From an uncultured Pseudomonadota bacterium (GTDB taxonomy: Bacteria > Desulfobacterota > Syntrophorhabdia > Syntrophorhabdales > Syntrophorhabdaceae): a stretch of 33,344 nucleotides of DNA. The notes under the pieces were generated by a model, which was given only the letters and a program-made list of their open reading frames with translations, ran no database searches and was not told the DNA's origin. The number at the start of each line of letters is the position of its first letter. Positions within the stretch are counted from its first letter, which is position 1. Below, one piece after another: positions 31-33,344 of this stretch. The stretch covers positions 1 to 33,344 of the forward strand of contig CALMFJ010000076.1 in the NCBI GenBank assembly GCA_937862865.1, written 5' to 3'. Made by a program: the position numbers and the translations under genes.

Positions 31-59
31 GGCTAACGGCTAACGGCTAACGGCTTCTA
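31..59. repeat. Heptanucleotide (7-bp period) tandem repeat, GGCTAAC x ~3.4
   Basis: ggctaacggctaacggctaacggc read directly; flanking GCGTAAG and GCTTCTA keep the 7-bp phase. Confidence 0.9.
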
Positions 60-112
60 TCACCCCTGTCCGTCATTCCCACTTTCGAGGCTGGGCATAA
101 TTGAAATTTTGT

Positions 113-250
113 CGTCATTCCGGCGCTTGACGCCGGAATCCAAGGTTTGTCGTTGATCTGGTTTTCTGGTTGTTCACAACATTTTAAATTCAGAAAGGTT
201 CAACAGGAAAACAAAACCTTAGATCCCGGCGTCAAGCGCCGGGATGACGG
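113..250. repeat. REPIN/MITE-like element: two inverted copies of a REP-like palindrome
   Basis: Arm 113-148 CGTCATTCCGGCGCTTGACGCCGGAATCCAAGGTTTGT and arm 211-250 (reverse complement CCGTCATCCCGGCGCTTGACGCCGGGATCTAAGGTTTTGT); each arm contains the palindrome CCGGCG-CTTGA-CGCCGG. Confidence 0.8.
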
Positions 251-293
251 GAGGAGGAGGACGGGATGACGGGAGGAGGGGGCCGGGATGACG
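240..293. repeat. 22-bp direct repeat, ~2.5 copies (CGGGATGACGGGAGGAGGRGGM)
   Basis: Units begin at 240, 262 and 284; first unit overlaps the REP-like arm. Confidence 0.75.
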
Positions 294-324
294 ATAGAAG
301 GGAAACGCCTTACGCTCTCACGCC

Positions 325-1884
325 TTACGGTCCTTTGTAGTCGAGCAGCCGCAGGATTATCCTGTCGACCATCCTGTCTACCGCTGCCGTCGATGTGTGG
401 CCGTTGGAGATGATCGAGAAGACGAGGTCCTCGCCTCCGTATGTCGTCATGTAGCCTGAGAGGCTCCTGACGCCGTTGATGGTCCCCGTCTTCGCACGGA
501 TGAGCCCCGATGCGCGTGACCCCTTGAGGCGGCGCTTCAGGGTGCCGTCAATGCTCATGATGGGAAGGGATTCGGAGAAATGGGCGGAATAGGGGCCGGC
601 CGCCATGACCCCCAGCAGGCGTGCAAGCTGGCGGGGCGCGACGAGGTTCAGCGGCGACAGGCCGCAGCCGTCGGCCATCACGATGCCGCGGGCGTCGATG
701 CCGGCTTTTTCGAGGGCCGCAAGTGCGACAGCGGCGGCGTTCCCGGTCGAATATGCGTTCCCCGCAGTCCTGCCGATCGCAAAGAGGAGCATCTCCGAGT
801 AAAGGTTGTTGCTCAGCTTGTTGATGACCTTGATGATCTCCGAGAGCCTGACAGACTGATAAACCGCCAGCGTTTCAAGAGGCCCGTTCCTTTTCCGTTG
901 TGCGATGTCAGTGATATCCGGGCAGTTGCGGGCACACAGGACGTTCCCCGTCGTATGTATCCCGGCCGCCGCCAGTGTCTCCTTCATGACGAACCCGCCG
1001 AACTGGGCAGGATAGCGGACTGGCACGTAGTGAATGGTCGCCGCGCCCCCGGGGCTTTTTGAGCCAAGGACCTGCAACGTCCTCGGGTCCGTGTAGTGAA
1101 AGCGGACCCCGTCCCCTCCCGCCCCTTTCCGGGAATTGAGCCTGTTCACAATTCGTATGTAATCACTCATGGGCTCCATGATGAACCGGAATCCCTGTCC
1201 TTTCTCGACCGGCGGGATGATGTCGAGCTGAATACAGTTGTTGTTGAAGGTGAAGGCATCCCGGGGGGCGCAGAAGCAGCGGTACGCGTCGTCCAGGTTC
1301 CAACCGTCCCCGTAAGGGCTTTCGGGGAATGCCGCGTTGTCGATGACGACATCTCCCCGTATCTCCCTGATGCCCCTGTCTGACAGGCGTTTTGCCCAGT
1401 CCTTGAAGACCCGTACCGGGTCATTGTCGTTGAAGTACCCGGAAATGGTCGGATCGCCGGACCCTTCGACAACAAGGTCCCCGTAGAGCACCCCCGACCG
1501 CACGCTGCCGTTCGTTGCAAGCCGTGTCTCATAGCGAAACTCGGGCGTCAGGACGATGAGGGCCGCCGCGCTCGTGAGAAGCTTCATGTTGGATGCGGGC
1601 CTGAGGGGCCTGTCGGGATTGAGCTCGAAAAGCCTTTCCCCCGTTGTCATCGATTCGACGACGACCCCGATCTTCGCCGGGCGAATTGCCGGGTCCTGTA
1701 CAATGGCCCGGAGATCACGAGCGAGGTTCGTGTCCGTGCCCGATGCCTGGCAGGGATGGAAGAGACCGATGAGAGACATGATGAAAACGCTGAGGGCAAT
1801 GCGAAGCATAAGCGGTTTTATCCGGCAATTGTGATGTGTTGCTTTCGTCAATAATTTGAAAGGAGGCATCTGTCGTTCTGGCAT
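325..1884 (-). CDS. dacB: D-alanyl-D-alanine carboxypeptidase/endopeptidase, PBP4 (S13) family; likely true start ~1809 giving a signal peptide MLRIALSVFIMSLIGLFHPCQA
   Basis: RPASNMKLLTSAAAL (SxxK), SNNLYSEML (SxN) and RAKTGTINGVRSLSGY (KTG) motifs. Confidence 0.92.
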   Translation of the reverse strand: MPERQMPPFKLLTKATHHNCRIKPLMLRIALSVFIMSLIGLFHPCQASGTDTNLARDLRAIVQDPAIRPAKIGVVVESMTTGERLFELNPDRPLRPASNMKLLTSAAALIVLTPEFRYETRLATNGSVRSGVLYGDLVVEGSGDPTISGYFNDNDPVRVFKDWAKRLSDRGIREIRGDVVIDNAAFPESPYGDGWNLDDAYRCFCAPRDAFTFNNNCIQLDIIPPVEKGQGFRFIMEPMSDYIRIVNRLNSRKGAGGDGVRFHYTDPRTLQVLGSKSPGGAATIHYVPVRYPAQFGGFVMKETLAAAGIHTTGNVLCARNCPDITDIAQRKRNGPLETLAVYQSVRLSEIIKVINKLSNNLYSEMLLFAIGRTAGNAYSTGNAAAVALAALEKAGIDARGIVMADGCGLSPLNLVAPRQLARLLGVMAAGPYSAHFSESLPIMSIDGTLKRRLKGSRASGLIRAKTGTINGVRSLSGYMTTYGGEDLVFSIISNGHTSTAAVDRMVDRIILRLLDYKGP

Positions 1885-5148: not shown

Positions 5149-5169
5149 AATCCGAATTGCATATTAAAA

Positions 5170-5528
5170 GGGCAGACTGTAAGCCGGGTTCTGTTTTTCC
5201 GCCTTTTGAAGCGGAAACGGCGATCATTTCTCTGTATCCGGCATCACCGGATATCAAGCGGCCTACCCGGGTATTGGACGGGCCGTCCACGCCGCGTGAA
5301 GCGGCACCCTCTTTGGCCTTGCATCGGATGGGGTTTACAAAGCTCCCGCGTCGCCGCGGGACTGGTGGGCCCTTACCCCGCCATTTCACCCTTACCCTTT
5401 GAGGGCGGTATATTTTCTGTTGCACTTTCCCTGGGGTTGCCCCCGGTTCCCGTTAAGAACCATCCTGCCCTTCGATGCCCGGACTTTCCTCCCCGCCTGA
5501 TTCAGGCGGAGCGATCACCCGTCTGCCC
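5170..5528 (-). ncRNA. rnpB: RNase P RNA, bacterial type A
   Basis: Minus strand has GAGGAAAGTCCGGGC near the 5' end and ACAGAACCCGGCTTACAGTCTGCCC at the 3' end; P1 formed by GGGCAGAC/GTCTGCCC. Confidence 0.95.
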
Positions 5529-5921
5529 TTTTAATATGGCATCCTTCGCAAGTTTATCGGCTTCCCGATTTTGTTCCCGCGGAATATAGTGTATCGCAAA
5601 TCGGTCGAAATTGCTTACGGTTTGTTTTATTTTTTTCACATACTGAAAAAGGGTCATATTCTTGATCTTGTACAACCCGTTGACCTGGTTGGCAACAAGC
5701 TGTGAGTCCGTGTAGACCGTAACGTTTTTCACGGAATTCGAAACTGCGTCCTTGAGCGCGATGAGAAGCGCCTCGTACTCGGCCATATTATTGGTCATCT
5801 CACCGAGAAAGACGCTTTTTGAGAGGATGATGTTCCCGTCGTTGTCCCGCGCAACGATACCTGCACCCGACCTTCCGGGGTTGCCCGATGATGCGCCGTC
5901 GACGTTGATATGCCACTGCAC
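5502..5921 (-). CDS. Ribonuclease HI family protein; likely GTG start at 5921 (open frame extends to 5966)
   Basis: INVDGASSGNPGRSGAGIV, MAEYEALLIAL, YTDSQLVANQVNG and HYIPREQNREADKLAKDA are RNase H-fold motifs with D/E/D/D; GTG overlaps the upstream TAG stop. Confidence 0.9.
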   Translation of the reverse strand: MQWHINVDGASSGNPGRSGAGIVARDNDGNIILSKSVFLGEMTNNMAEYEALLIALKDAVSNSVKNVTVYTDSQLVANQVNGLYKIKNMTLFQYVKKIKQTVSNFDRFAIHYIPREQNREADKLAKDAILKGQTGDRSA

Positions 5922-6736: not shown

Positions 6737-6809
6737 TGGGCCCACTTGGGTTCGAACCAAGGACCTACCGGTTATGAGCCGGTGGCTCTTCCAGCTGAGC
6801 TATGGGCCC
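6737..6809 (-). tRNA. tRNA with CAU anticodon (Met, or lysidine-type Ile2); no encoded CCA
   Basis: GGGCCCATAGCTCAGCTGGAAGAGCCACCGGCTCATAACCGGTAGGTCCTTGGTTCGAACCCAAGTGGGCCCA folds as a cloverleaf. Confidence 0.95.
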
Positions 6810-6866: not shown

Positions 6867-6937
6867 GTGAACAGTCAACAGTAAACAGTGAGGAGTCGGT
6901 AAAGCTCTCCACTGTTTACTGTTTACTGTTCACTGTC
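6867..6937. repeat. Inverted pair of 7-bp-period repeats
   Basis: 6867-6894 GTGAACA GTCAACA GTAAACA GTGAGGA; 6910-6937 CACTGTT TACTGTT TACTGTT CACTGTC; the arms are complementary. Confidence 0.9.
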
Positions 6938-6988: not shown

Positions 6989-8335
6989 ATGAGTGACGAA
7001 AGGGTCACCAAGGAAGTATTGCTTGAAAAGGCGCGGAAACCCGCTCTCGATGCTATGAAAATGCATCCGTTCTATAAAGGAAAGATAGAGATGGTCCCGA
7101 AGTGTGTCGTGAGGGACGTCAATGACTTTGCGATCTGGTACACGCCGGGTGTTGCCGAACCGTGCAAGGCGATCAATAAAGACCCTGAAAAGGTTTTCGA
7201 ATACACGAACAAGGGGAACACGGTGGGCATCGTGACCGACGGGACGCGCGTTCTCGGCCTCGGTGACATCGGCCCGATGGCAGGACTGCCCGTCATGGAA
7301 GGAAAGGCGCTGCTGTTCAAGTATCTCGGCGGCGTCGACGCCTTCCCGATCTGCCTCGATACGAAAGACCCGGATGAGATAATACGGACCGTAAAATTGA
7401 TCGCTCCCGTGTTCGGCGGAATAAATCTCGAGGACATAGCGAGCCCGAAATGTTTTTATATACTGGAGAAATTACGGGCCGAATCGCCGATACCCGTCTG
7501 GCACGACGACCAGCAGGGCACGGCTGCCGTGACGCTCGCGGGCCTTGTCAACGCGCTTAAGATTGTCGGCAAGAAGATCGAAGACGCGAAGATCACGATG
7601 ATCGGCATAGGCGCCGCAAATGTCTGCATCGTCCGGATGCTGATCAAGGCCGGCGCGGACCCGAAGAAGATCATCGTTGTCGACAGCAAAGGCATTCTCA
7701 ACCGCAGGCGTGATGACATAAAGCCCGCCTATAAAGAGAAGCTTGAGCTTGCGCAGATGACGAACGGAGAAAACCGTGAGGGGGACACCGCTGCGGCGCT
7801 CAAGGGGCAGGATGTGCTGATCGCCCTGTCGAAGTCGGGGCCCGACGTTATCCGGAAAGACTGGGTGGCATCAATGGCTGACAACGCTATTGTGTTTGCC
7901 TGCGCCAACCCGATACCCGAGATGTGGCCGTGGGACGCAAAAGAGGCAGGCGCACGGATCGTGGCGACGGGCAGGAGTGATTTTCCGAACCAGGTAAACA
8001 ACTCGGTCGGCTTTCCGGCCATCTTCCGGGGCACCCTCGACGTTATGGCGCGCACGATAACGGATGAGATGTGTATCGCGGCCGCATACGAGCTTGCACG
8101 GTTCGCCGGGGACAAGGGGCTTGACGAGGACCATCTTCTTCCCACGATGAGCGAGTGGGAGGTTTTCCCGAGGGAAGCGGTCGCCGTCGCGAAAATGGCC
8201 ATGCAACAGGGAGTGGCGCGCCCGACGATAGACGAGAAGGAACTCTACAATATGGCCGCCGCGAAGATACGCAGGGCACAGGACGAACTGGGGCTTCTCA
8301 TGGAGAAGGGCATCATAGCACCTTACCAGGAATGA
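6989..8335 (+). CDS. NAD(P)-dependent malic enzyme (oxaloacetate-decarboxylating)
   Basis: YTPGVAEPCKAI, GNTVGIVTDGTRVLGLGDIGP, VWHDDQQGTAAV, IGIGAANVCIVRML. Confidence 0.95.
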   Translation: MSDERVTKEVLLEKARKPALDAMKMHPFYKGKIEMVPKCVVRDVNDFAIWYTPGVAEPCKAINKDPEKVFEYTNKGNTVGIVTDGTRVLGLGDIGPMAGLPVMEGKALLFKYLGGVDAFPICLDTKDPDEIIRTVKLIAPVFGGINLEDIASPKCFYILEKLRAESPIPVWHDDQQGTAAVTLAGLVNALKIVGKKIEDAKITMIGIGAANVCIVRMLIKAGADPKKIIVVDSKGILNRRRDDIKPAYKEKLELAQMTNGENREGDTAAALKGQDVLIALSKSGPDVIRKDWVASMADNAIVFACANPIPEMWPWDAKEAGARIVATGRSDFPNQVNNSVGFPAIFRGTLDVMARTITDEMCIAAAYELARFAGDKGLDEDHLLPTMSEWEVFPREAVAVAKMAMQQGVARPTIDEKELYNMAAAKIRRAQDELGLLMEKGIIAPYQE

Positions 8336-10911: not shown

Positions 10912-10912
10912 G

Positions 10913-11646: not shown

Positions 11647-12714
11647 TCATTTATTAATCATATTAAAGATCTCTTCCTTCAATATATTCTTCGCCATCTC
11701 CTTCGGTATCCCCGACTTGATCACTGTGCCTTTTTTAAAGAGCATTGCGCTCGTTGCGCCGAAAGCGAGGCCTATGTCGGCTTCCCGCGCTTCACCGGGG
11801 CCGTTGACCTCGCAGCCCATGATGGCGACGTCGAGGTGGGCGTCAAATTCAGCGATCTCGTTTTCGAATTCCTCGACGATCTCGGCGAGGTTTGTCTTCG
11901 TCCGACCGCACGTGGGGCAGGAGATGATGTTTATTCCGCGTTTTCTTAGACCGAGGCCCCTGAGGATATGATACCCGGCGATGACCTCCAAAACGGGGTT
12001 GCCTGTGAGCGATACCCGGATGGTGTCGCCGATCCCTTCGTGAAGAAGGATGCCGATACCGATCGCCGACTTGATCGCGCCGGAGAAAACAGGGCCCGCC
12101 TCGGTTATCCCGACATGGAGGGGGTAATCGGAGCGTTTGGAGAATTTTTTGTATGCGGTGATGGTTTCCTGTATGTCGGACGCCTTGAGGGACACCTTGA
12201 TCTCCGTCCAGCCGACATCTTCAAAGAGCGCGATGTGATACAGGGCGCTTTCGACCATCGCATCGGCGTTCGGCCTTGGGTGGTCCTTCAGGACGCGCTT
12301 CTCAATGGACCCGGTGTTCATCCCGAGGCGGACCGGCGTTTTCGTATCCCGCGCCATGACGGCAACTTCTTTGACCTTCCGCAGGTTATTTATCGTACCG
12401 GGATTTATCCGGATGCCGTCGATGCCGAGTTCCATCGCCTTGAGCGCGATCTTATGATTGAAATGAATGTCGCCGATGATGGGAACGTCCACTTCCTTTT
12501 TAAGGAAAGGGATGATCTTGCACGTCTCTTCCTGGGGAAGAGCTATCCGCACGAGTTCACATCCCGCCTTCTTCAGTTCCCGGGTCTGTGTCAGCGTCTC
12601 GTTGAAATTTTCCGGGTTTGTCTTCAGCATCGACTGAACGACGATAGGGGCCCCGCCCCCTATGGGCACCCCGCCGACCTTGATCGGCCTTGTTTTTTTT
12701 CTTTTCATTCTCAC
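11647..12714 (-). CDS. ispG: 4-hydroxy-3-methylbut-2-enyl diphosphate synthase
   Basis: KTRPIKVGGVPIGGGAPIVVQSM, GIRINPGTI, LGMNTGSIE, CPTCGRTKTNL, MGCEVNGPGEAREADIG. Confidence 0.96.
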   Translation of the reverse strand: MRMKRKKTRPIKVGGVPIGGGAPIVVQSMLKTNPENFNETLTQTRELKKAGCELVRIALPQEETCKIIPFLKKEVDVPIIGDIHFNHKIALKAMELGIDGIRINPGTINNLRKVKEVAVMARDTKTPVRLGMNTGSIEKRVLKDHPRPNADAMVESALYHIALFEDVGWTEIKVSLKASDIQETITAYKKFSKRSDYPLHVGITEAGPVFSGAIKSAIGIGILLHEGIGDTIRVSLTGNPVLEVIAGYHILRGLGLRKRGINIISCPTCGRTKTNLAEIVEEFENEIAEFDAHLDVAIMGCEVNGPGEAREADIGLAFGATSAMLFKKGTVIKSGIPKEMAKNILKEEIFNMINK

Positions 12715-12778: not shown

Positions 12779-12872
12779 GGTAATAGGTAATAGGCGATAG
12801 GGAAAGCTGTATTGGTTCCCATCACCCATCACCCATCACCGGGTTTTTTTCTGTAGCCCATAGCCCATAGCC
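12779..12872. repeat. Three blocks of 7-bp-period repeats, the first two inverted relative to each other
   Basis: 12779-12799 GGTAATA GGTAATA GGCGATA; 12818-12838 CCCATCA x3; 12855-12871 AGCCCAT AGCCCAT AGCC. Confidence 0.88.
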
Positions 12873-14750: not shown

Positions 14751-14774
14751 GGCGATAGGCCATGGGCAATGGGA
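14751..14774. repeat. 7-bp-period repeat immediately 3' of oadB
   Basis: GGCGATA GGCCATG GGCAATG GGAA. Confidence 0.75.
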
Positions 14775-14812
14775 AAACCACCAATGGCCTGTGAAACGCG
14801 ATGAATCTTTTA

Positions 14813-14847
14813 GGGTCGGACGGGCAGCTGTCCGACCCCGTTTTTTT
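14813..14847 (+). terminator. Rho-independent terminator after oadB
   Basis: GGGTCGGAC-gggcagct-GTCCGACCC followed by CGTTTTTTT. Confidence 0.88.
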
Positions 14848-17904: not shown

Positions 17905-17914
17905 ATGTCCATCC

Positions 17915-19303: not shown

Positions 19304-19325
19304 ATTTCCTGCCTTGTCACTGAGT

Positions 19326-21086
19326 TTACCAGACCAACGCCCGGATGCTGTTGGTTATGTCTCTCTCGATAGCGTCGAACTGTTCCAGCTGGTCCTCCGG
19401 TATGAGTTTCGCCTGCACGATCTCTTCGATGACATTGAGGTTGAGCAGGGCCTCAAGGGTCGCGCCGTCGGAGAGACCCGTGCGGATCTCGTCGTAATAC
19501 CGCAGGATGAGGTTGAGCATCAGGAACTGTTTCCTCGGTGATGTGTATGTGTCGCGGTCGTCAAACGCGTTCTGATGGAGGAAATCCTCCCTGATCATGC
19601 GTGCCGCCTGCATGAGGAGCCGGTCCTCCGTCGTCAAGGAATCGACCCCGACCAACCGGACGAGCTCGTCGAGCTCGGCTTCCTTCTGCAGGATGGACAT
19701 GGCTCGCTTCCTGTTGACCGACCACATTGTATCGACCGTTTTATCCGCGTCCTCGTCAACGGTGTCCTGGTAGAGGGAATATGAGGAGAGCCAGTTGACG
19801 GCGGGAAAATGCCGGGCGAACGCCAGCTTGTCGTCAAGCCCCCAGTACACCTTCACAACACGCAGGGTCGTCTGAACGACGGGCTCGGACAGGTCGCCGC
19901 CGGGAGGCGATACAGCGCCGATGATGGAAACGGCTCCGCGCCGGTCGTTTGCGCCGATGCAGACAACGGAACCGGCACGTTCGTAGAACCCCGCAATGCG
20001 CGACCCGAGATACGCGGGGTACCCTTCTTCCCCGGGCATTTCCTCGAGCCGTCCCGATATCTCGCGCATTGCCTCGGCCCAGCGGCTGGTGGAATCCGCC
20101 ATGAGCGCAACCGAGTACCCCATGTCCCGGAAGTATTCCGCAATTGCGATCCCCGTAAAGACGCTGGCCTCGCGCGCGGCAACAGGCATGTTGGAGGTGT
20201 TTGCTAGGAGCACGGTCCGTTCCATGAGCGGTTCGCCTGTCGCCGGGTCCTTTAAATGCGGGAACTCCATGAGAACGTCTGTCATTTCGTTTCCGCGTTC
20301 CCCGCAGCCGACATACACGACGATCTGCGCGTCGGCCCATTTTGCCAGCTGGTGCTGGACCACGGTCTTCCCGCTGCCGAACGGCCCGGGAACGCATGCC
20401 GTTCCACCCTTCACGATGGGGAAGAACATGTCTATGATCCGCTGCCCCGTCACCATCGTCTGTACAGGGGGCATTTTCCGCTTTACCGGGCGCGGGTCCC
20501 GGACGGGCCATCTCTGGACCATGGTGACGCTGAGAAGGCTGCCTTTTTCTTCGATGACCGCAACCTCGGTATCGACGTCGCCGGTGACGGGACTGATCCT
20601 CTTCACGATCCCGGACCTTCCCGGGGGCATCATTATCTTATGTACAATGATCGCGGTTTCCTGGACCGTGCCGAGAATATCGCCCCCGGTTACCAGGTCC
20701 CCGACATGGACGCTCGGTATAAAGTCCCACTGCCGTGTCCTGTCAAGGGCGGGCCTGCGGGCCCCCCTCACGATGTATTCGCCGAAATCACGGGCCAGGG
20801 CATCAAGGGGCCGCTGGATGCCGTCGTAAATGGAGCGGATGAGGCCCGGGCCCAGTTCGACACTGAGAGGTTCCCCTGTTCGCACGACAGGCTGCCCGGG
20901 GCCGATCCCTTCGGTTTCCTCGTACGTCTGGATCGAGTACTCGCCCCCCCTTATCTCGATTATCTCGCCAAAAAGCCCCAGGTCCCCGACGCGAACCATT
21001 TCATACATTCGCGCACCCGCCAGACCCTTTGCCACTACAAGCGGTCCCGAGACTTTTATGACCTGTCCGCTGGTTCCGTCCATCAT
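19326..21086 (-). CDS. atpA: V/A-type ATP synthase catalytic subunit A
   Basis: [18 protein letters not shown]-loop, [47 protein letters not shown]. Confidence 0.97.
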
Positions 21087-21434
21087 TTATCCCTCATTCT
21101 CTTCGCTGGTCTCATCCTTCTTGAAAAGATCGATCCCCACCGAGCGTTCTATGGCCCATCTCATTTCCTTGTAGCTTGTCCGCGGGCTGTCTTCATGCAT
21201 CGGGACCACGGTAAGGATCGTAGAACTGCGTGAGCGAAACTCGTCTATCACGCCTTTCGGGGCCTCCGCAACGATACTTTCCGTGACAAGGATAAGCCCG
21301 ACGTCATGCCTGCGTGTCAGCATGAACAGTTCCTCGGCCAGGTCTTTCGGATCGGAGACGGGCACTGTCTCAAAACCTATGCCCTTGAAGCCGAGTATCA
21401 GGTGTTTTTCCCCCACTATGCATGCCTTAGACAT
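21087..21434 (-). CDS. atpF: V/A-type ATP synthase subunit F
   Basis: CIVGEKHLILGFKGIGFETVPV; position in operon. Confidence 0.9.
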   Translation of the reverse strand: MSKACIVGEKHLILGFKGIGFETVPVSDPKDLAEELFMLTRRHDVGLILVTESIVAEAPKGVIDEFRSRSSTILTVVPMHEDSPRTSYKEMRWAIERSVGIDLFKKDETSEENEG

Positions 21435-22437
21435 TCACATACCTCAATCGCTGGGCGAGGATGTCCGGGTCGATCCTGTTGATCTTTCCGGTGACAACAA
21501 GCTTGAGGTTTTGCATTTCCGCTTCGAGGGCCATGAGAAAATCAAAGACCCGCTCAGGCCCCGATGTTTCGAACCGCGCGTATGTTGCCATATGGAGGAC
21601 GAGGTTGGTCACCTTGAGATCGAACGTCGAGACCTGCTCCTCAAAGGGCATCTGCAAGGCCCGCGACAGGAGGTCACCCAGCTCTCCCCCGATGATCTCA
21701 GGCCATGCCGACGGGTCCCGGATGTCCGCCAGTTCGAGGACCAGGAGATCCTCGTCCCCGACCGGCAGGAGATAATCCGCCACCTGCCTGAGGTCCCGGT
21801 CCTGCCTGAGAACACGCCAGAGGGCCGAGACGACGTGGCCGGAAACAAGTTCCCTGACGCACGTCTGGATCAGGGGGCTGTCTATGGCGGATGCCAGGGC
21901 GAGCATCTGGCGCAGATACGCCCCGTCGACAAATATATCGGACAATGACTGGTCCATCTCGGAGACATTTATCGAGCTTCCCGTGATGCGCTCCCGGAAA
22001 GCCGGCGGGAGGTCGTCATATTCACCGTCGAGAATGGAAATGATCGTATTCTCCGGTATCATTCCGGGCAGGAACCGGATATCTTCCATCCCGGCAAGGG
22101 CAGTCTTTATGTTGAGGTAGTCGTTTTTGATGAGGAAGAGATCTGCCGGTACCGGCGACGGGCAGTCGCGGCGGATCGAAACGGCATAGTCGTAAAAACA
22201 CCGGTCAGCAACGGCGCTGAAATCTTCCCAGGGTACGCCGGGGTCGAGGTAATCCTCGATGAGCGTGCCCTGTAAATGCTGAAAAACGTCTTCCGTGTGA
22301 TGCATTTCGATGATCGAGGGAAAAAACTCGCGGGGCAGCAGTTTGCCTTCGAGGGCACTTATCCTGCCGCACACAAAACCCCATTTCGGGCGGTTCTTTA
22401 TGGAAGGTGCTATAAGAGAGGTTGTTAAAGTGGTCAT
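21427..22437 (-). CDS. atpC: V/A-type ATP synthase subunit C (AC39-like)
   Basis: YGFVCGRISALEGKLLP-type N terminus, FFLIKNDYLNIKTAL; position between E and F. Confidence 0.9.
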   Translation of the reverse strand: MTTLTTSLIAPSIKNRPKWGFVCGRISALEGKLLPREFFPSIIEMHHTEDVFQHLQGTLIEDYLDPGVPWEDFSAVADRCFYDYAVSIRRDCPSPVPADLFLIKNDYLNIKTALAGMEDIRFLPGMIPENTIISILDGEYDDLPPAFRERITGSSINVSEMDQSLSDIFVDGAYLRQMLALASAIDSPLIQTCVRELVSGHVVSALWRVLRQDRDLRQVADYLLPVGDEDLLVLELADIRDPSAWPEIIGGELGDLLSRALQMPFEEQVSTFDLKVTNLVLHMATYARFETSGPERVFDFLMALEAEMQNLKLVVTGKINRIDPDILAQRLRYVNV

Positions 22438-23021
22438 ATGCCTGCCAGGTCGCGTGCTATTTCAGGAAGAAGGGCCGTTTCTATATCCCGCATGATCGTC
22501 TCTATCGTTGCGTCTATCTCGTAGTTGTCGCCGATAAAAATGAAGCCGCCTTTCCCGGAAAGGGATCCTTCATCGATCTTCAGGTCCAGCCCGGCATTCC
22601 GTTTTGAATTGATCTCACGCAATATCTTTTCAAAGATGTCCCGTTCGCCGCCGTGTACCCTTACGGCGCCTCCGCGCCCCTCCGATATGCGGTCCAGGAG
22701 CTGTCTCATTTTCTGCTCATATCTGTCCGCCGGCCAGGAATGCAGTATATCCCGTGCCTCCTTGAAAATGGCGCGCACTGCATTATTTCTTGCCTCAAGA
22801 AGCTCTTTGGCCGCGTTCCCCTGGAACCGGGCGAGTTTGCGGCCGTACTCTTCCCTGATCAACCTCGAGCGGGCCTGGAATTGGTACTCGAATTCCCTGC
22901 GGAGATTTTCCTTTTGAGCCTCCGCCTTCTCCGAAGCCTGCTTCTGCGCCGCGGTGCTTATATGCCCGGCCTCGGTGCGGGATGCGTTGAGAACGGCTTC
23001 CTTGATCTTCTCTAAACTCAT
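22434..23021 (-). CDS. atpE: V/A-type ATP synthase subunit E (peripheral stalk)
   Basis: Charged helical N terminus and GGFIFIGDNYEIDATIETIM; position in operon. Confidence 0.88.
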   Translation of the reverse strand: MSLEKIKEAVLNASRTEAGHISTAAQKQASEKAEAQKENLRREFEYQFQARSRLIREEYGRKLARFQGNAAKELLEARNNAVRAIFKEARDILHSWPADRYEQKMRQLLDRISEGRGGAVRVHGGERDIFEKILREINSKRNAGLDLKIDEGSLSGKGGFIFIGDNYEIDATIETIMRDIETALLPEIARDLAGI

Positions 23022-23032
23022 ACGCGCATCTC

Positions 23033-23551
23033 TTACTGTATAACCTGCTGCAGAATTGCCGGCTGGGTCAGGAATATTATGAACAATATCGTTGCAAGGA
23101 GCGCAACAACGGCATATGTTTCAACGAAGGCCGGGAACAGGATGGCCCGGCCTGCCGATTCCGGCCGTCGGGCTACCAGAGAGATCCCTGCCGCCGAGGC
23201 TTCGCCCTGTTTTATTGCCGATATCAATTGGGCGATCCCGTTTCCGAGACCAATGAAGAACAGGGCAAGCCCGGTCCCGAGGCTTATCTTGATGGGCCCT
23301 CCGGCTATAAGGCCCGTTTGCGTCATGATGAGTATAGCGGCGATAAAACCGTAAAAACCCTGGGTCCCGGGCAGGGCGACCATAACGAGCATCCTGCCGA
23401 ACAATTCAGGTTTTTCGCGCATGACGCCGGCTGCCGCATGGGAGGCGATCGCGATCCCGAACGCAGAACCGGCCCCGGCCAGCCCAAAGGTAAGCCCTGC
23501 ACCTGCATAGCAAAGTCCTCGACCAATTTCGATCCATTCAGGGGTCATCAC
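23033..23551 (-). CDS. atpK: V/A-type ATP synthase subunit K (four-TM duplicated proteolipid)
   Basis: LPGTQGFYGF, AIKQGEASAAGISLVARRPE, FVETYAVVALL. Confidence 0.95.
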   Translation of the reverse strand: MMTPEWIEIGRGLCYAGAGLTFGLAGAGSAFGIAIASHAAAGVMREKPELFGRMLVMVALPGTQGFYGFIAAILIMTQTGLIAGGPIKISLGTGLALFFIGLGNGIAQLISAIKQGEASAAGISLVARRPESAGRAILFPAFVETYAVVALLATILFIIFLTQPAILQQVIQ

Positions 23552-23575
23552 TGTGTTCCTCCCGGAATTGTATAA

Positions 23576-25651
23576 TTATCCATGAGATGTATCCTCCTTT
23601 TTCATCGCGCACAGAGGGGAGTCAAATCCCAATGCCTGGAAAGGGCGCGCTCCCGCATCGTAAAAGCGCCCGAAAAATTCAACGAAGATAAGGCGCATCG
23701 AGTGAACGAAAGCGCCGAGAAGGCTGATCAGGAAATTAAAGAGGTGTCCCACCACGACCACGATAATAAACAGAATGATCCCGACATAAGGGATGTCTTT
23801 CAACAGTCCGCCGAGCATGTTGAAGGTCATGCCCACGATGCTTGTCGTAAGCCCCAGGGCAAGCAGGCGGCAGTATGACAGGACGTCCCCGATAAATGCC
23901 GTTATCCCGTAGCTGCCCATGATACCGTACAGGCTCACTATCCCGCCCAGTATCCGGGCAACGGGATTCTTGAGTTCCCGCCCCTGGGTGAGGATGAGCC
24001 CCAGGGCCCCCGCAGCGAACAAAATGAGCCCTGACCGGTAGACAAGGACAGGTGTTGCCACAAAGATCCTGCTTGCTATGATCAGAAGCCCGGGCAACGC
24101 CAGGAACCAGAAAAAACCGTCGAATAATGCGCTTTTCCAGTCACCCTGCCGAATCGACCCGTACATTTTCAGAGCTATGCCGAAGAACTGGTTCATAACG
24201 CCGATGAAAAGGGCTATCAGCAGGGCGGGAATTGTCTTGCTCACCGGGTCAAGCACCGCAAAAACCGATTGGATGCGTAAAAGGAGGTTGCCTTCCCCCA
24301 GGTACTTGGGTTGGTAAAGGTCGCCGAACCAGGAACCGAGAAGGGAGCCGAATATAACGGTGCTGATCCCCCCCATCAGGAGTATGCGGCCAAAATCCGC
24401 CACCCCTTCGTACTGTTTCGTGCGGCTGATGAGATACAGGGAGGCCGCTATCAGCATAAGGCCGTAGCCGACATCGGAGAAGCATATCCCGAAAAAAAGA
24501 TAAAAGTTTATATGGAGGTACGGTGTGGGGTCGAAACCCTTGTAAGGCGGCAGCCCGAACATTTCCACAAGCAGGGAAAGCGGACGGAAAACCTTCGGCA
24601 GGGAAAGACTGACCGGAACCTCTTCGTCCTCGCCCGGTTCTTCCAGGATAATGACGGATTCAGGAAACTGGCTGCCAAATTTCTCCTGAAAATGTGCTAT
24701 GTCCCTTTCGCGAATATATCCGGTAAGGATGTTCACCCATTTCCCGCCCACCGTTTTTCCCACCGCGAGGTGTTCATTTTTGTTTGCCGTCCAGAAAGCC
24801 TTGAGGGTTGTCAGGGTGCGGCGCTCGGGTTTAAGCGCCCGGACTTGCGCAATCGTTTCCTCTATGGTTGCCGATACCGCCGCCAGGTCCCCTTCCAGTT
24901 CCCGGACGTGGTCGCCGATGGTGCCGTTGAATTCGGGCAAAGTGATCTCAACGAAGGAAAGCTTTGCCAGTCCGGCTTTTACCTCGTCACTATCGTCCTT
25001 GAGGGCGGCGATCACTATTCGCTGCGCGTCCTTTATGTTTTTTACCGTTCTGAGGCCCTCGGCCGCAGCGGCATCCGGACCTTCCGCTCCCGTCAGCGTT
25101 TCCCAGGCAGTGTTTTTCCACGGGTACGAGGGCCTGTCAAGGTCTCCCAGTTTTTTCTCCGGGATGTAACCGAGAATGAGATCAATCCGCCGTCGCCGGT
25201 GCCAATCCTCCATCCGGAAAGGGATATCTGAAAAAGGCCGAAGCGCGGAAAGGCTGTTCTCTATCTCACCTTTGATGCGCTCATTGCGTCGCAGTATATC
25301 GTCGAGTTCGCTTGCCTTGCGAAACCTGTCGTCCAGGTCGTAATCTTCAGTGGCGTACCGCAGTTCTTCCCGGGTGATCAACTGGGGGACCGGGGTCAGT
25401 CCCTCGAAAAAACCCTGTTCTTCGGGCGCATATGTTTTGAGGAGATTCAGAATGGTATCGATCTTCCGCAAAACATCGTCTGTGTCCTCGGTGGATGAGC
25501 GACCCGTCTTGAAATAGCCGGATTCATCCGCAATGAGCCTGCCGGCGTCCGTCACGTCGATCATCCCGAGGGAACTGACAACGCGCATAACCCTGCTGGT
25601 GCTGTGGATGGTACTTACGATTGTCAGTTTCTTGATCGGGTCTATTGCCAT
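23576..25651 (-). CDS. atpI: V/A-type ATP synthase subunit I (a-like)
   Basis: FGICFSDVGYGLMLI, SYCRLLALGLTTSIVGMTFNML, VGHLFNFLISLLGAFVHSMRLIFVEFFGRFY. Confidence 0.96.
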   Translation of the reverse strand: MAIDPIKKLTIVSTIHSTSRVMRVVSSLGMIDVTDAGRLIADESGYFKTGRSSTEDTDDVLRKIDTILNLLKTYAPEEQGFFEGLTPVPQLITREELRYATEDYDLDDRFRKASELDDILRRNERIKGEIENSLSALRPFSDIPFRMEDWHRRRRIDLILGYIPEKKLGDLDRPSYPWKNTAWETLTGAEGPDAAAAEGLRTVKNIKDAQRIVIAALKDDSDEVKAGLAKLSFVEITLPEFNGTIGDHVRELEGDLAAVSATIEETIAQVRALKPERRTLTTLKAFWTANKNEHLAVGKTVGGKWVNILTGYIRERDIAHFQEKFGSQFPESVIILEEPGEDEEVPVSLSLPKVFRPLSLLVEMFGLPPYKGFDPTPYLHINFYLFFGICFSDVGYGLMLIAASLYLISRTKQYEGVADFGRILLMGGISTVIFGSLLGSWFGDLYQPKYLGEGNLLLRIQSVFAVLDPVSKTIPALLIALFIGVMNQFFGIALKMYGSIRQGDWKSALFDGFFWFLALPGLLIIASRIFVATPVLVYRSGLILFAAGALGLILTQGRELKNPVARILGGIVSLYGIMGSYGITAFIGDVLSYCRLLALGLTTSIVGMTFNMLGGLLKDIPYVGIILFIIVVVVGHLFNFLISLLGAFVHSMRLIFVEFFGRFYDAGARPFQALGFDSPLCAMKKEDTSHG

Positions 25652-25654
25652 AGC

Positions 25655-25966
25655 CTACCAGTTGTTGAATCTGTCGATGATCTTGCCGGCGTGAAAACGT
25701 ATGAAATCAACGGGCAGCTTTTTCAGGGCATCGAGCTTTGCTGTGTGCTCCTGTAATGCAGCTGCAAGGGATGCTTCGCATTTCTCGTCCTCGTCGGCCT
25801 TGAACCGTGCAAGCCGTGCTTCAAGCTCAAGGGACAGTTCGTTGCGATAACGGGCTATCTCATCGTCCGATGCCTTGAGGATGTTTTTGGATTGGGTATG
25901 GGCCTCATCGACAATGGCATCCGCTTCTTTTTCAAGTGAAATAATGCTGTCAACAAGGGATGCCAT
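25655..25966 (-). CDS. atpH: V/A-type ATP synthase subunit H-like peripheral stalk protein
   Basis: 103-aa charged coiled coil, first gene of the operon. Confidence 0.75.
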   Translation of the reverse strand: MASLVDSIISLEKEADAIVDEAHTQSKNILKASDDEIARYRNELSLELEARLARFKADEDEKCEASLAAALQEHTAKLDALKKLPVDFIRFHAGKIIDRFNNW

Positions 25967-29059: not shown

Positions 29060-30889
29060 ATGTACACCGATTATTGGGGCCTAAAAAAACCGCCATTCGA
29101 TAATGTGCCAGACCCGTCGATGTATGTAGATTCCCATCTTTCCGTTGAAAATACCGTCGCAGAAACCCTCTTTGCCATCGAAGAAGGAAACGAATGTCTC
29201 ACCGTCATCGTCGGAGACGTCGGGCTTGGCAAGACGCTGTCCCTGCGGCTTATCCTTGATTCCCTCGACCAGAGCAAGTACAAGATCGCTTTTGTCACTA
29301 ACCCCGATATGTCCTTCGTTCAGATCTTGAGGGAGATCATCGGCCAGCTCACGGGAAAAGAGTGCGAGATCAGAGGCAGGACCGAACTCCTCGAAATATT
29401 CAACAAGCTTTTGTTTGAAACGGCCGATGAGGGCAAAAAGGTGCTGGTGTTTATCGATGAGGCAAACGCTATATCGCCGACCAACCTCGAAAGCCTGCGA
29501 CTTCTCACGAATATGCAGGATGATACCCGGAACCTGTTCACGATAGTCCTTGCGGGACAGATGGAGCTTGCCAAGAGGCTTGAACATCCCAAGAGGGCAA
29601 ATCTTTTCCAGCGTATCGGCACGTATAACAGGATCGAAAAAATGGACAGCGAGGAGCTGGTGAGAAATTATGTCGATACCAGGCTCAAGCTGGCGGGTGC
29701 GGACAAGGCCATTTTCACGGATGACGCCATTCGCAGGCTGTATCAATATTCGGAGGGCGGGGTCCCCCGTCTCGTGAACAAGATAGCGAAGCTTTGTCTC
29801 AAGGCGGGTGAGACGAATAATTTCTCATCCATCAATGGTGACATAGTCCAGCAGATCGGGCAGCGTTTTATAAAGATGACGGGCCCTGCCGTACAGAAGC
29901 GGACCCTCTCCGGGAAACCGAAAAGGGTCAGGGAAGAGGAAGCCCCGGAGAAGGCTGCACCGAAAAAGAAGGCAGCGGCGCAGGCGAAACAGGTCGCCGC
30001 ACCGCCACCGCCGCCACCGCCTCCTCCTCCCGAGGAAAAGCCGGTCTTCGCACCGCCGCCTCCTCCGCCACCGCCACCGCCACCGCCTCCTCCTCCGCCA
30101 CCGCCTCCTCCTCCGCCCGCGGAGAAACCTGTCGCTGCACCTCCTCCACCGGTGGAAGAGAAGCCGATTATTATTCCGGAACCCGCATCACCGCCGCCGC
30201 CTGAGGCCCCGCCAGCAGTTCCTGAGGCCGTGCAGGAGATAAAACTTGCAGTGGAAGAAGAGTTTCAGGAAGGTTTCGAAGTCAAGGAAGTGCTGGAGCC
30301 GGCAGCAGTGATCGAGGCGGAAATAGAACCCGCTGTTGTCCCCGAAGAAGAAGTGCAGGCGGTCACGCCGGAGCCTCAGAAAGAAGAACCCGCAGCAGCC
30401 GAACCGCCACCGGAGGAGGCACCGGTCGCTGCGGCTCCCGAACCGCCACCGCCTCCAACCGCTCCTGCGGCCGTAGAGGAACAGCCGGTTGTTGCACCAC
30501 CGCAAGCACCGGAAAAACAACCGATCTTTGTGCCCGAACCTGCACCTGTCCCTGAACAGCCGGTCTTTACAGCGCCGGCACCGCCAGCTCCGCCGCCGTC
30601 TGCCCCGGAACCAACCCGGCTCGCTACTGAGGCGCCGGCAGAGCCCATACAGGAGCTGGAACCGGATGCCGCCATGATCGCGGGCTGCAAGATCAGGGTC
30701 GAGATACCGACACATATTTTCGAGCAGACGGTCGGTGCCGGTCTGGACCAGAAACGGAAGATCGCCGGCGTACTGGCCGCCCAGACCCTGGAGAAGAACC
30801 CGCAACTTACGGCGTCGCCCACGGTGGACCCCGTATCGGTGTGGAGCGAAATACTGGCGGTGATAATGAAACGCCTCGAGGCGGCCTGA
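29060..30889 (+). CDS. ExeA/GspA/MshM-like AAA ATPase with long proline-rich C-terminal region
   Basis: YWGLKKPPFDNVPDPSMYV, Walker A GDVGLGKT, Walker B VLVFIDEAN, GGVPRLVNKIAKLCL; Pro runs of 10 and 22. Confidence 0.88.
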   Translation: MYTDYWGLKKPPFDNVPDPSMYVDSHLSVENTVAETLFAIEEGNECLTVIVGDVGLGKTLSLRLILDSLDQSKYKIAFVTNPDMSFVQILREIIGQLTGKECEIRGRTELLEIFNKLLFETADEGKKVLVFIDEANAISPTNLESLRLLTNMQDDTRNLFTIVLAGQMELAKRLEHPKRANLFQRIGTYNRIEKMDSEELVRNYVDTRLKLAGADKAIFTDDAIRRLYQYSEGGVPRLVNKIAKLCLKAGETNNFSSINGDIVQQIGQRFIKMTGPAVQKRTLSGKPKRVREEEAPEKAAPKKKAAAQAKQVAAPPPPPPPPPPEEKPVFAPPPPPPPPPPPPPPPPPPPPPPAEKPVAAPPPPVEEKPIIIPEPASPPPPEAPPAVPEAVQEIKLAVEEEFQEGFEVKEVLEPAAVIEAEIEPAVVPEEEVQAVTPEPQKEEPAAAEPPPEEAPVAAAPEPPPPPTAPAAVEEQPVVAPPQAPEKQPIFVPEPAPVPEQPVFTAPAPPAPPPSAPEPTRLATEAPAEPIQELEPDAAMIAGCKIRVEIPTHIFEQTVGAGLDQKRKIAGVLAAQTLEKNPQLTASPTVDPVSVWSEILAVIMKRLEAA

Positions 30890-30911: not shown

Positions 30912-31841
30912 CTAACCGTCTGTCCTGTTCTGGCGGGACCTGTGAAGCTGGATCATACCGAGGAGTTGTTTGGCTTCCCTGTGCTGGGGGTTTGTGCCGA
31001 GCACGTACTGAAGCCTGTTTTTTATGCCTTCGAGAAGTTCGGGCTCGGGTTTTTCCCGGTATTGAATATACTGAAGGCGGGCAAGATTATAGTGCGCGTC
31101 CTCCTGGTAGTTGTTTATGCCTAAAGACGTGCCGTACGCAAATATAGCGTTCTCAATGCTTCCCAGCATTTCGTATATGTAACCGAGATAATTCCATGCA
31201 GTCGTGTTGTCGGCGCTGAGTTCTACAACGCGGGAGAATGCGTCGAACGCCTTTCTTGGCTCGCCTTGCTGGAGGTAGAGGCGGCCCATGTTGAACCACG
31301 CCTTCACATGGTGCGGATCGATCTCGAGCGCTTTGCGGTATTCTTCGATTGCTTCGTCGAACATGTCATGTCTGTCCAGGATCGATCCGAGAAAAAAGTG
31401 GGGCTGAGGGGCGTAAGGATCGATCTCGATGGCCTGTTCCCAGAGGTCTATCGCACCATTGTAATCGGCTTGCATCTCGTGAATGTGCGCCAGGTTGATA
31501 AACGCTTCCATATGCTTCGGGTTGATCTTGAGGGCCTGCTCGTACATTTGCCTGGCCATGCCGAAACGGTCCATCTTCTCGTACGTGTAGCCGAGATTGA
31601 TATATGCCTCCACGTTTCCCGGTTCAAGCTGAACAACCTTCGTGAAATAATGGAGCGCCTTTTCGTAATCCTCCTGCTTGAGATAAATGAGCCCCAGGTT
31701 CACATAGGCTTCTGCATAGTCGGGGTCGATCTGGATGCATTTCTTGTATGCCTTGACCGCTTTTTCGGCTGACTGCTCGAGGAGGTCATAGTGGTAGGCT
31801 TCGAGAAACCATTGCTGTGCGGTCTTTTTGGTCGTTGCCAT
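30912..31841 (-). CDS. Tetratricopeptide repeat protein
   Basis: At least six 34-aa TPR units, e.g. AEAYVNLGLIYLKQEDYEKALHYFTKVVQLEPGN. Confidence 0.93.
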   Translation of the reverse strand: MATTKKTAQQWFLEAYHYDLLEQSAEKAVKAYKKCIQIDPDYAEAYVNLGLIYLKQEDYEKALHYFTKVVQLEPGNVEAYINLGYTYEKMDRFGMARQMYEQALKINPKHMEAFINLAHIHEMQADYNGAIDLWEQAIEIDPYAPQPHFFLGSILDRHDMFDEAIEEYRKALEIDPHHVKAWFNMGRLYLQQGEPRKAFDAFSRVVELSADNTTAWNYLGYIYEMLGSIENAIFAYGTSLGINNYQEDAHYNLARLQYIQYREKPEPELLEGIKNRLQYVLGTNPQHREAKQLLGMIQLHRSRQNRTDG

Positions 31842-31891: not shown

Positions 31892-31977
31892 CGTTCTGCG
31901 TTCCGGGTTCTACGTTCTACGTTAAGAAATCTCATAATGAAGCGTAAACGTAGAACGCAGAACGTGGAACGCAGAAC
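31892..31977. repeat. Inverted pair of 7-bp-period repeats abutting the MFS gene stop codon
   Basis: 31892-31926 CGTTCTG CGTTCCG GGTTCTA CGTTCTA CGTTAAG; 31943-31977 CGTAAAC GTAGAAC GCAGAAC GTGGAAC GCAGAAC. Confidence 0.9.
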
Positions 31978-33185
31978 TAGGCCTTTTTTTTCAGTATCAG
32001 GGAGCCGAACGCCCCGACGAGCGACACTCCTGCGGAGAGCAGGAATGCGCCCGTGAAGCTTCCCGTGGAATCCTTGATCATGCCGCCGGCGAGAGGCCCG
32101 AGGGCCTGGCCTATGCCGAAGAACAGGGTTATGAACCCGAGGCCGGCCGGTGCAAGGCGCCCGCCGACAGCGTCACCGGACGCCGCCGCCATTATGGTGG
32201 GGATGGAGAAGGCTGCGATGCCGAAGATGACGGCGGAAACATAGAACCCTGTCGTGTCCTTCCAGAAAGCGAAGACAACATAGGATAGTGCAAGCGTGAG
32301 GTAGGCCAGCATCGACCCGTACCTTCTGCCGAGAACGTCGGATATCCAGCCGTAGATAACCCCGCAGAATATACTGAAGATCCCGAGGACCGCAAAGATC
32401 CTGCCCGCTGCGATCGGCGTCACGTGCATTTCCTTCGTGAGGAAGGCCACGAAAAACGTAAGGTAGATTATGTACGAGAACCCGTACATGAAATAAACGG
32501 CGCCAAGCTTCCATATCTCCGTTTCGACAACGACGTCCTTGAATGCCGAGAAGAGTGTGACCTTTGGGCCGCCCTTTTGTTCCTCGGTCCCGCCATACAT
32601 CGTCAGGCCCTTTTCGGCCGGGTTGTTCCTTAAGAATGCGTAGCAGACGAACGCAAGGACGAAGACGGCGATCCCGAGTGAGTACCACGCGTAACGCCAG
32701 CCGTCCTTCCCGAAATGCGATATGATCGGTGGCAGGATGATACCGGCGATGAAAAGGCCGGTCCCGATACCTGCGGACACTATGCCTGTTGCGAGGCCCC
32801 TTTTCTTCGCGATGAACCATGCCGCCGGCAATGCCATGATCGGGACGTAGGCGCCGCCATTACCGAGACCTGCGATAAGCCTCATGAAGAATGCGAACAG
32901 GAACGAATCTGAAAGGCCCGTGAGGAACAAGCTGACCCCTATCACCAGAAGGGAGATGAAAACGACACGCCGGACGCCGAAACGGGCCGCAAGGAAGCCT
33001 CCTATGATGGCGAGGCTGAGATATCCGATGAAATTGCCGGTCGCTATGGAACCAAGCTGCGTGTAGTTGAGCATGAGCCCGTCCTTCATCGGCGGCAATA
33101 TAACCGAGTAGGACATCCGTCCGAAGCCATGGGCGAGAATTGTCACGAGCGTACCGGCAAAAGCGATAACCCACGCATAATGCAT
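31977..33185 (-). CDS. MFS transporter (OxlT/monocarboxylate-like)
   Basis: 12 TM pattern, GFLAARFGVRRVVF and GWISDVLGRRYG MFS signature loops. Confidence 0.88.
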   Translation of the reverse strand: MHYAWVIAFAGTLVTILAHGFGRMSYSVILPPMKDGLMLNYTQLGSIATGNFIGYLSLAIIGGFLAARFGVRRVVFISLLVIGVSLFLTGLSDSFLFAFFMRLIAGLGNGGAYVPIMALPAAWFIAKKRGLATGIVSAGIGTGLFIAGIILPPIISHFGKDGWRYAWYSLGIAVFVLAFVCYAFLRNNPAEKGLTMYGGTEEQKGGPKVTLFSAFKDVVVETEIWKLGAVYFMYGFSYIIYLTFFVAFLTKEMHVTPIAAGRIFAVLGIFSIFCGVIYGWISDVLGRRYGSMLAYLTLALSYVVFAFWKDTTGFYVSAVIFGIAAFSIPTIMAAASGDAVGGRLAPAGLGFITLFFGIGQALGPLAGGMIKDSTGSFTGAFLLSAGVSLVGAFGSLILKKKA

Positions 33186-33250
33186 CGTTCACCTCCGGCA
33201 AAACATTGGATTTTCTTTCAATGCTACGTCCTCATCCCCGGAAATGCAAG

Positions 33251-33280
33251 AAAAAGCCGCCTGCTTCCAGGCGGCTTTTT
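33251..33280. terminator. Bidirectional intrinsic terminator hairpin
   Basis: AAAAAGCCGCCTG-cttc-CAGGCGGCTTTTT. Confidence 0.85.
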
Positions 33281-33283
33281 CGG

Positions 33284-33344
33284 TCCTACGTCCTACGTCC
33301 TACGTCCTACGTCCTACGTCCTACGTCCTACGTCCTACGTCCTA
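33284..33344. repeat. Perfect heptanucleotide tandem array TCCTACG x >=8.7, running off the window
   Basis: 61 nt of uninterrupted TCCTACG repeats. Confidence 0.98.

What the first reader, a model, noticed from the sequence alone, without database searches (positions are those of the whole stretch)
31..33344. Sequence-unrelated intergenic repeats that all share a strict 7-bp period
At least six intergenic sites carry short repeats with different units but the same 7-bp period: GGCTAAC (31-59); GTNAACA/TACTGTT (6867-6937); GGTAATA, CCCATCA and AGCCCAT (12779-12872); GGCGATA/GGCCATG/GGCAATG (14751-14774); CGTTCTA/GNAGAAC (31892-31977); TCCTACG (33284-33344). Several degenerate units still hold the 7-nt phase, which suggests a process that selects or generates the period rather than one sequence. 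Heptanucleotide STRR repeats are known in heterocystous cyanobacteria, but one genome hosting many different heptads in this gene context looks different. A mechanism (slippage unit of a polymerase, or a protein with a 7-bp footprint) is speculation.
Basis: partly seen in the sequence, partly recalled or inferred. Interest (0 to 1): 0.72.

Follow-up and report, generated by a model that had tools for sequence, protein, structure and literature searches.

The report
Species-specific heptad-armed palindromes after genes
This uncultured Syntrophorhabdus-like bacterium has scores of short palindromes sitting just after the stop codons of its genes, with arms made of about four and a half copies of a 7-letter word; sister species have the same kind of palindrome built from a different 7-letter word, so the layout outlasts the sequence.

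Summary
All six sites exist, and period 7 dominates intergenic DNA genome-wide: in blindly chosen contigs (1.35 Mb), 75 intergenic arrays of period 7, plus 31 and 9 of its multiples 14 and 21. Every other period has at most 3, and shuffles give 0.

The arrays are the arms of palindromes: 112 of 156 have an inverted partner within 220 bp (random places: 4). Arm length peaks at 31-33 bp, about 4.5 heptads, across families. Polarity is fixed (A 19/19, C 7/7, B 8/9). None of 85 palindromes lies inside a gene; outer edges sit a median 4 nt from a stop codon. The units fall into four main families (GYRGRAC, GGYNATR, ACGGCNA, ACAGYRA).

Each species of the genus has its own dominant heptad. One orthologous gap carries GTAGAAC in the window and GTAAATC, GYAAGTC, YTGAAAC or CTGAGAC in sister species, or nothing.

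A fair permutation test rejects within-element arm homogenisation. Best reading: dispersed REP/MITE-like palindromes whose arms are heptad-array recognition sites of an unidentified trans-acting protein. Closest precedent: paired tandem-repeat sites of Geobacter metallireducens. The protein and the reason for 7 bp are unknown.

The parts
21..59 (+). Family C array (AACGGCGTAAGGCTAACGGCTAACGGCTAACGG), probably one arm of a wide palindrome cut by the contig start
   Evidence: score 54, period 7
304..330 (-). Likely partner arm of the same family in reverse (ACGCCTTACGCTCTCACGCCTTACGG); overlaps the stop codon of the D-Ala-D-Ala carboxypeptidase-like gene 325-1884(-)
   Evidence: read by eye; units GTAAGGC/GTGAGAGC
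116..248 (.). REP-like palindromes ATTCCGGCGCTTGACGCCGGAAT and GATCCCGGCGTCAAGCGCCGGGATGAC lying in the spacer of the outer palindrome
   Evidence: similar cores recur in the loops of about 20 other elements
6867..6933 (.). Palindrome of family D (ACAGYRA): arms 6867-6895 and 6905-6933, 29 bp each, 90% identical, upstream of the malic enzyme gene (6989-8335)
   Evidence: RNA fold -42.1 kcal/mol, z -8.3
12779..12840 (.). Palindrome of family B (GGYNATR): arms about 12779-12802 and 12818-12840, followed on + by CGGGTTTTTTT, between divergent ispG-like gene (11647-12714 -) and gene 12924-13268 (+)
   Evidence: RNA fold of - strand -38.8 kcal/mol, z -8.0
12854..12872 (-). Extra family B array (TAGCCCATAGCCCATAGCC)
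14751..14774 (+). Family B array (GGCGATAGGCCATGGGCAATGGG) starting about 5 nt after the stop of gene 13603-14745, with a short partner about 14776-14790; a canonical terminator follows at 14813-14838
   Evidence: weak fold z -2.3
31893..31977 (.). Palindrome of family A (GTTCYRC ... GYRGAAC): arms 31893-31923 and 31947-31977, flush with the stop codon of the MFS transporter gene (31977-33185 -) and upstream of the TPR-protein gene (30912-31841 -); the orthologous site studied in relatives
   Evidence: RNA fold -49.0 kcal/mol, z -8.2
33283..33344 (.). Perfect GTCCTAC array (8.9 copies) at the contig end, after a canonical terminator; variant of family A (GTAGGAC); length may be set by the assembly

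Best explanation
Shown: the sites belong to a genome-wide class of intergenic palindromes. Each has two inverted arms of about 31-33 bp (about 4.5 tandem heptads) with fixed polarity and a variable spacer (median 50 nt), placed immediately 3' of stop codons. Within a genome the arms follow a few heptad consensuses with degenerate Y-R positions; sister species have the same architecture with a different dominant heptad. Inferred: these are dispersed, non-autonomous REP/MITE-like palindromes, whose arms are arrays of the recognition site of a lineage-specific trans-acting DNA-binding protein (most likely the enzyme that spreads them). Successive families with new heptads amplify and replace older ones in each lineage, and purifying selection leaves only copies between a stop codon and the next promoter or opposing stop, where their hairpins may secondarily shape mRNA 3' ends. 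Not shown: the protein, the movement itself, and why the unit is 7 bp (4.5 heptads equals three turns of B-DNA, which is only suggestive).
For: Inverted pairing 112/156 versus 4 at random places and 15 direct. 85 palindromes, none inside genes, outer edge median 4 nt from a stop; in tandem gene pairs the stop-side gap beats random placement in 38 of 47. Arm-length mode 31-33 bp in family A (43 of 77), with 88 of 163 arrays of all families at 29-34 bp. Polarity A 19/19, C 7/7, B 8/9; A arrays next to a stop codon have one strand orientation in 41 of 42. Species dialects: two tandem GTAGAAC, 185 hits in G000 versus 29 in G004, 12 in G009 and 0-2 in other members of the genus; three tandem GTRARTC, 0 in G000 versus 130 in G004 and 13 in G009; three tandem YTGARAC, 9 in G000 versus 29-282 in six species; three tandem GCRATRG, 156 in G000 versus 0-3 in the rest of the genus; reversed-pattern controls near 0 in the genus. 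At the MFS-TPR site the local heptad agrees with the genome's own dialect in the window and L190, L191, L194, L195, L196, only remnants are visible in L197, and L192/L193 lack it with about 22 nt between stop and the -35-like TTGACA (G-number mapping from positions). Nested palindromes with different heptads, like shells, in L195 and repeated arms with similar linkers (AGAAAC, AGAAGAC) in L034, L041, L087, L147. Arms of an element are no more alike than arms of different elements (A p=0.51), as expected if each arm is constrained by a common reader rather than by its partner.
Against: Loops are mostly unrelated between copies and arm similarity does not predict loop similarity (Spearman 0.04), which is odd for elements that jump as a unit. 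The obvious mobiliser, a REP-associated Y1 transposase, is not supported: G002 has 236 YTGARAC hits and no PF01797 match. No target-site duplication could be established. Unrelated transposon families would not be expected to share a 7-bp period in their ends.
Confidence: 0.4

Rival explanations
1. Selected functional sites, not mobile elements: each arm is a 4-5-fold binding array for a chromosomal protein (DNA-uptake receptor, nucleoid or 3'-end factor). The sites accumulate where insertions are tolerated, after stop codons, and the dialect follows changes in the protein's specificity, as with DNA uptake sequence dialects.
For: Fixed polarity and strand relative to the gene end, conserved arms with unrelated loops, degenerate Y-R positions with the other positions nearly constant, species dialects; DUS show inverted pairs near terminators and species dialects (PMC3630211).
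Against: Arms of about 32 bp would have to arise de novo at scores of loci within one genus; nested shells and clean empty sites look like insertion; no candidate protein was identified.
Confidence: 0.27
2. Mutational origin: replication slippage in steps of 7 plus template switching between hairpin arms builds and homogenises the palindromes in place.
For: Tandem arrays and inverted arms are known products of slippage and quasipalindrome template switching (PMC7202029 and PMC8604942, abstracts); heptamer simple repeats are over-represented in many bacteria and a polymerase-footprint cause was proposed (PMC4692102); the L190 arms look identical over 28 nt including variant units (read by eye).
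Against: The same heptad consensus recurs at dozens of unrelated loci in one genome and is absent in sisters; arm length has a sharp mode rather than a decaying distribution; a fair permutation test finds no excess similarity of the two arms of an element.
Confidence: 0.12
3. 3'-end hairpins: the palindromes are selected as transcription terminators, bidirectional insulators or mRNA stabilisers.
For: Flush with stop codons and filling gaps between converging genes; outer 3' flank T-rich (TTTT in 30% of flanks versus 10%), loop start A-rich; very stable predicted folds.
Against: In tandem contexts arm mismatches are G-U 51 versus A-C 42 in the sense RNA, no sign of selection for RNA pairing; canonical terminators coexist beside or inside elements; the absence of elements at the same gap in G007 and G011 is tolerated; a hairpin function does not need a 7-bp period or a species dialect.
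Confidence: 0.15

Closest known systems
Paired tandem-repeat sites of Geobacter metallireducens (classes 1-3 and the H4 GGACCGG elements; PMC2700814)
   Same: Dispersed multicopy sites made of 3-5 tandem 7-9 nt repeats (H4: four heptanucleotides; class 3: five heptanucleotides), mostly in pairs on opposite strands with variable spacing; several different units in one genome; called predicted global regulator binding sites.
   Different: Units differ (GGACCGG, MTYCTGA, GTTGCTYN); H4 elements also lie inside genes; species-specific replacement of the unit at orthologous sites and placement flush with stop codons were not described in the text read here.
REP/BIME palindromes and MITEs
   Same: Short dispersed intergenic palindromes, absent from coding DNA, near gene 3' ends, family turnover between species (own knowledge).
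   Different: Arms are period-7 arrays; loops unrelated; PF01797 transposase absent from an element-rich genome.
DNA uptake sequence dialects of Neisseriaceae (PMC3630211)
   Same: Inverted pairs associated with terminators, species-specific dialects, many copies.
   Different: DUS are short single words, common inside genes, not tandem; here the sites are tandem heptads and none of 85 is intragenic.
Heptanucleotide repeats: STRR of heterocystous cyanobacteria, GGGNATC of Xanthomonas/Nostoc (PMC4692102), TAACTGA of Beggiatoaceae (PMC4679880)
   Same: 7-nt tandem units in intergenic DNA, many loci; Xanthomonas repeats mostly four units and some inverted pairs.
   Different: Mostly direct arrays of one unit; Beggiatoaceae repeats lie just upstream of start codons, here downstream of stop codons; no paired polarity rule or dialect switching at orthologous sites reported in the text read.

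Membership tests
G. metallireducens-type paired tandem-repeat sites | tandem 7-9 nt units, about 3-5 copies per site | tested here: met
   mode 31-33 bp, about 4.5 heptads
G. metallireducens-type paired tandem-repeat sites | sites paired on opposite strands at variable distance | tested here: met
   112/156 inverted partner; spacer median 50, 10th-90th percentile 15-105
G. metallireducens-type paired tandem-repeat sites | same unit sequences | tested here: not met
   units GTAGAAC, GGCGATA, ACGGCTA, ACAGTAA versus GGACCGG, MTYCTGA, GTTGCTYN
REP/RAYT elements | intergenic palindromes in many copies | tested here: met
   85 palindromes in 1.70 Mb, none inside a gene
REP/RAYT elements | Y1 (PF01797) transposase present with the elements | tested here: not met
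   G002 element-rich with no match; one 35.8-bit match in G000
REP/RAYT elements | transposase gene flanked by its own palindromes | not testable with these tools
DNA uptake sequences | single short word, frequent in coding DNA | tested here: not met
   tandem heptads, 0 of 85 palindromes inside genes; 3 of 100 blind arrays more than 30 nt inside a called gene
DNA uptake sequences | species dialects and inverted pairs | tested here: met
Slippage-generated simple repeats | decaying copy-number distribution, locus-specific units | tested here: not met
   sharp length mode and units shared by many loci
Intrinsic terminators | GC-rich stem, short loop, T-tract | tested here: inconclusive
   T-rich outer flanks in a minority, long spacers, canonical terminators nearby
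Rfam families | score above gathering threshold | tested here: not met
   only RNase P RNA and a tRNA in the window

The most novel reading that the evidence does not exclude
A dedicated trans-acting system (a protein with a 7-bp reading step, or an enzyme carrying a heptad template) writes or mobilises arms of fixed length at gene ends, and the heptad it uses is swapped during speciation, so that a whole genome's set of palindromes is rewritten in a new dialect.
Probability: 0.15. Interest if true: 0.9.

Novelty: new variant of a known kind. Interest (0 to 1): 0.62.

Why it matters
Architecture (period 7, about 32-bp arms, fixed polarity, position at stop codons) is kept while sequence is replaced between sister species. 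That separates the maker or reader of such repeats from their sequence, and makes an old puzzle, why heptamer repeats are over-represented in bacteria, testable: compare genomes of one genus that differ in dialect and look for the gene that changes with it.

Tried and rejected
1. In-register arm matching first suggested hairpin-templated homogenisation; the alignment had been chosen for best register, so the test was biased. The permutation test on independently detected arms found nothing, and I dropped the claim. 2. RNA pairing selection: G-U 51 versus A-C 42, no strand bias. 3. RAYT/REP mobilisation: Y1 transposase distribution does not follow element number. 4. Elements spreading as arm-plus-loop units: loops and flanks mostly unrelated, no correlation with arm similarity. 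5. Rfam: no family at the sites. 6. 'Every heptad carries a stop codon so three units close all frames': considered; fails for family A, whose sense strand after the gene reads GTTCTAC with no stop. 7. A single meta-consensus GYRRNNN for all units: considered; breaks down because family A has the opposite strand polarity to B and C. 9. A phylum-wide scan for NTGAAAC triplets found only sporadic low counts in 14 of 395 genomes, so amplification of that heptad is largely confined to this genus among those sampled.
Full report
The window is a complete contig (C76, 33,344 bp) of a 2.64 Mb, 96.5%-complete metagenome assembly. Named relatives recovered with the TPR-protein gene include two Syntrophorhabdus MAGs and other deltaproteobacterial MAGs. 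All six reported sites exist. Lag-7 runs of 10 or more matches occur seven times in 3.1 kb of intergenic DNA and never in the coding DNA of the window.

Of this, 1.35 Mb was taken blindly by contig number; 20 stretches were picked because of GTAGAAC hits and are not used for rates. In the blind set, intergenic tandem arrays with TRF score >=40 number 75 at period 7, 31 at 14, 9 at 21, and 3 or fewer at any other period. Twenty order-3 shuffles of the pooled intergenic DNA gave none at period 7. Period 7 is therefore a genome-wide property.

The units form families: A, GYRGRAC (AACGTAG, AACGCAG and so on); B, GGYNATR; C, ACGGCNA and GTAAGGC; D, ACAGYRA; E, NTGAAAC. Degeneracy sits at one or two positions, mostly a pyrimidine-purine step: in family A, TA 115, TG 48, CG 31, CA 8.

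The arrays are arms of palindromes. 112 of 156 arrays with enough flank have an inverted partner within 220 bp, against 15 direct, 0 reversed-control and 4 at random places. 85 palindromes were delimited. Array length, re-measured by lag-7 extension, has a sharp mode: 43 of 77 family A arrays are 31-33 bp, and 88 of 163 arrays of all families are 29-34 bp. Polarity is fixed: left/right orientation is -+ in 19 of 19 A pairs, +- in 7 of 7 C pairs and 8 of 9 B pairs. The array next to a stop codon lies on one strand relative to that gene in 41 of 42 cases for A, 12 of 14 for C and 21 of 29 for B.

Position: none of 85 palindromes lies inside a called gene; the outer edge is a median 4 nt from a stop codon (n=83) and 35 nt from a start. 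In tandem gene pairs the gap to the stop is smaller than random placement in 38 of 47. Most convergent cases fill the gap from stop to stop. Gene calls are my own (ORFs scored by codon usage), so edges carry a few nucleotides of uncertainty. Blind occupancy is 14% of convergent, 10% of tandem and 6% of divergent gaps of at least 25 nt.

Relatives give the most striking result. Counting matches in whole genomes: two tandem GTAGAAC (up to 1 mismatch), 185 in G000, 29 in G004, 12 in G009, 0-2 in the rest of the genus. Three tandem GTRARTC: 0 in G000, 130 in G004, 13 in G009, none in other members of the genus. Three tandem YTGARAC: 9 in G000, but 84, 236, 29, 162, 64 and 282 in G001, G002, G003, G005, G006 and G010. 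Three tandem GCRATRG: 156 in G000 and 0-3 elsewhere in the genus. Reversed-pattern controls are near zero in the genus. Each species thus has its own dominant heptad, where one was found; G007, G008 and G011 showed none of the four tested.

At one orthologous gap, between the MFS transporter stop and the TPR-protein start, the local heptad agrees with the genome's dialect: GTAGAAC in the window, GTAAATC in L190 (G004), GYAAGTC in L191 (G009), YTGAAAC in L194 (G002), NTGAGAC in L195 (G001) and L196 (G010), and remnants in L197 (G006). L192 (G007) and L193 (G011), whose genomes have no YTGARAC triplets, have no element and only about 22 nt between the stop and a -35-like TTGACA (loci mapped to G handles by position). 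On a TPR-gene tree the YTGARAC genomes form one clade (100/100) and the GTAGAAC, GTAAATC and GYAAGTC genomes another. L195 shows nested palindromes with different heptads around a REP-like core.

What keeps it so? A first comparison suggested the two arms of an element match in register, but that alignment had been chosen for best register. With independently detected arms and permutation within families there is no excess (A 0.766 own versus 0.766 permuted, p=0.51; B and C also null). Arm similarity between elements does not predict loop similarity, and flanks outside the arms are unrelated. In sense RNA, arm mismatches are as often A-C as G-U. So the arms look constrained one by one to a genome-wide consensus, not by pairing with their partner. 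That favours a common trans-acting reader over hairpin-templated repair or RNA-structure selection.

Two readings remain: terminal-repeat-like ends of dispersed palindromic elements, or chromosomal binding arrays selected at gene ends. Nesting, empty sites and lineage-specific amplification lean to the first; unrelated loops and the shared period across families lean to the second. The obvious REP mobiliser is not supported: G002, among the richest in elements, has no PF01797 match.

Comparison with the known. The nearest description is in the Geobacter metallireducens genome paper (PMC2700814): dispersed sites with four or five tandem heptanucleotides or three to four octanucleotide-like repeats, mostly paired on opposite strands at variable distance, proposed as global regulator sites. 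DNA uptake sequence dialects (PMC3630211) are a functional analogy for species-specific inverted pairs at gene ends. Heptamer repeats in Xanthomonas/Nostoc (PMC4692102) and Beggiatoaceae (PMC4679880) are mostly direct arrays of one unit. I found no report of dialect replacement at orthologous sites in the searches made, which cover open-access papers only.

Limits: one MAG with about 64% of its letters read; relatives known mainly through pattern counts; one orthologous site compared in sequence; contig-end arrays may have assembly-limited lengths.

Noticed in passing
window 5164-5530 (-): Bacterial RNase P class A RNA (Rfam 284.6 bits).
   Followed up: no
window 6737-6809 (-): tRNA gene directly before the family D palindrome.
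   Followed up: no
window 17266-25966 (-): Complete V/A-type ATPase operon (subunits read from the ORFs) in a deltaproteobacterium.
   Followed up: no
window 116-293: REP-like palindromes of the ATTCCGGCG..CGCCGGAAT kind followed by a 22-bp tandem GCCGGGATGACGGGAGGAGGGG; similar cores recur in the loops of about 20 heptad palindromes.
   Followed up: partly
window 1-55 and 33283-33344; L026:1-53; L052:1-52: Contigs begin or end in heptad arrays of 35-62 bp, so these repeats probably fragment the assembly.
   Followed up: partly
L105:687-790: About 15 perfect copies of GCGACCT in a relative (G010), far longer than the usual four to five units.
   Followed up: no
L034:1757-1811, L041:13674-13763, L087:5176-5231, L147:5539-5602: Two family A arms in tandem joined by a short similar linker (AGAAAC or AGAAGAC); the motif AAAGA/AAGAC lies within 20 nt of the loop start in 23 of 64 family A loop ends.
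   Followed up: partly
window 29060-30889: ExeA-like AAA protein with very long polyproline stretches.
   Followed up: no
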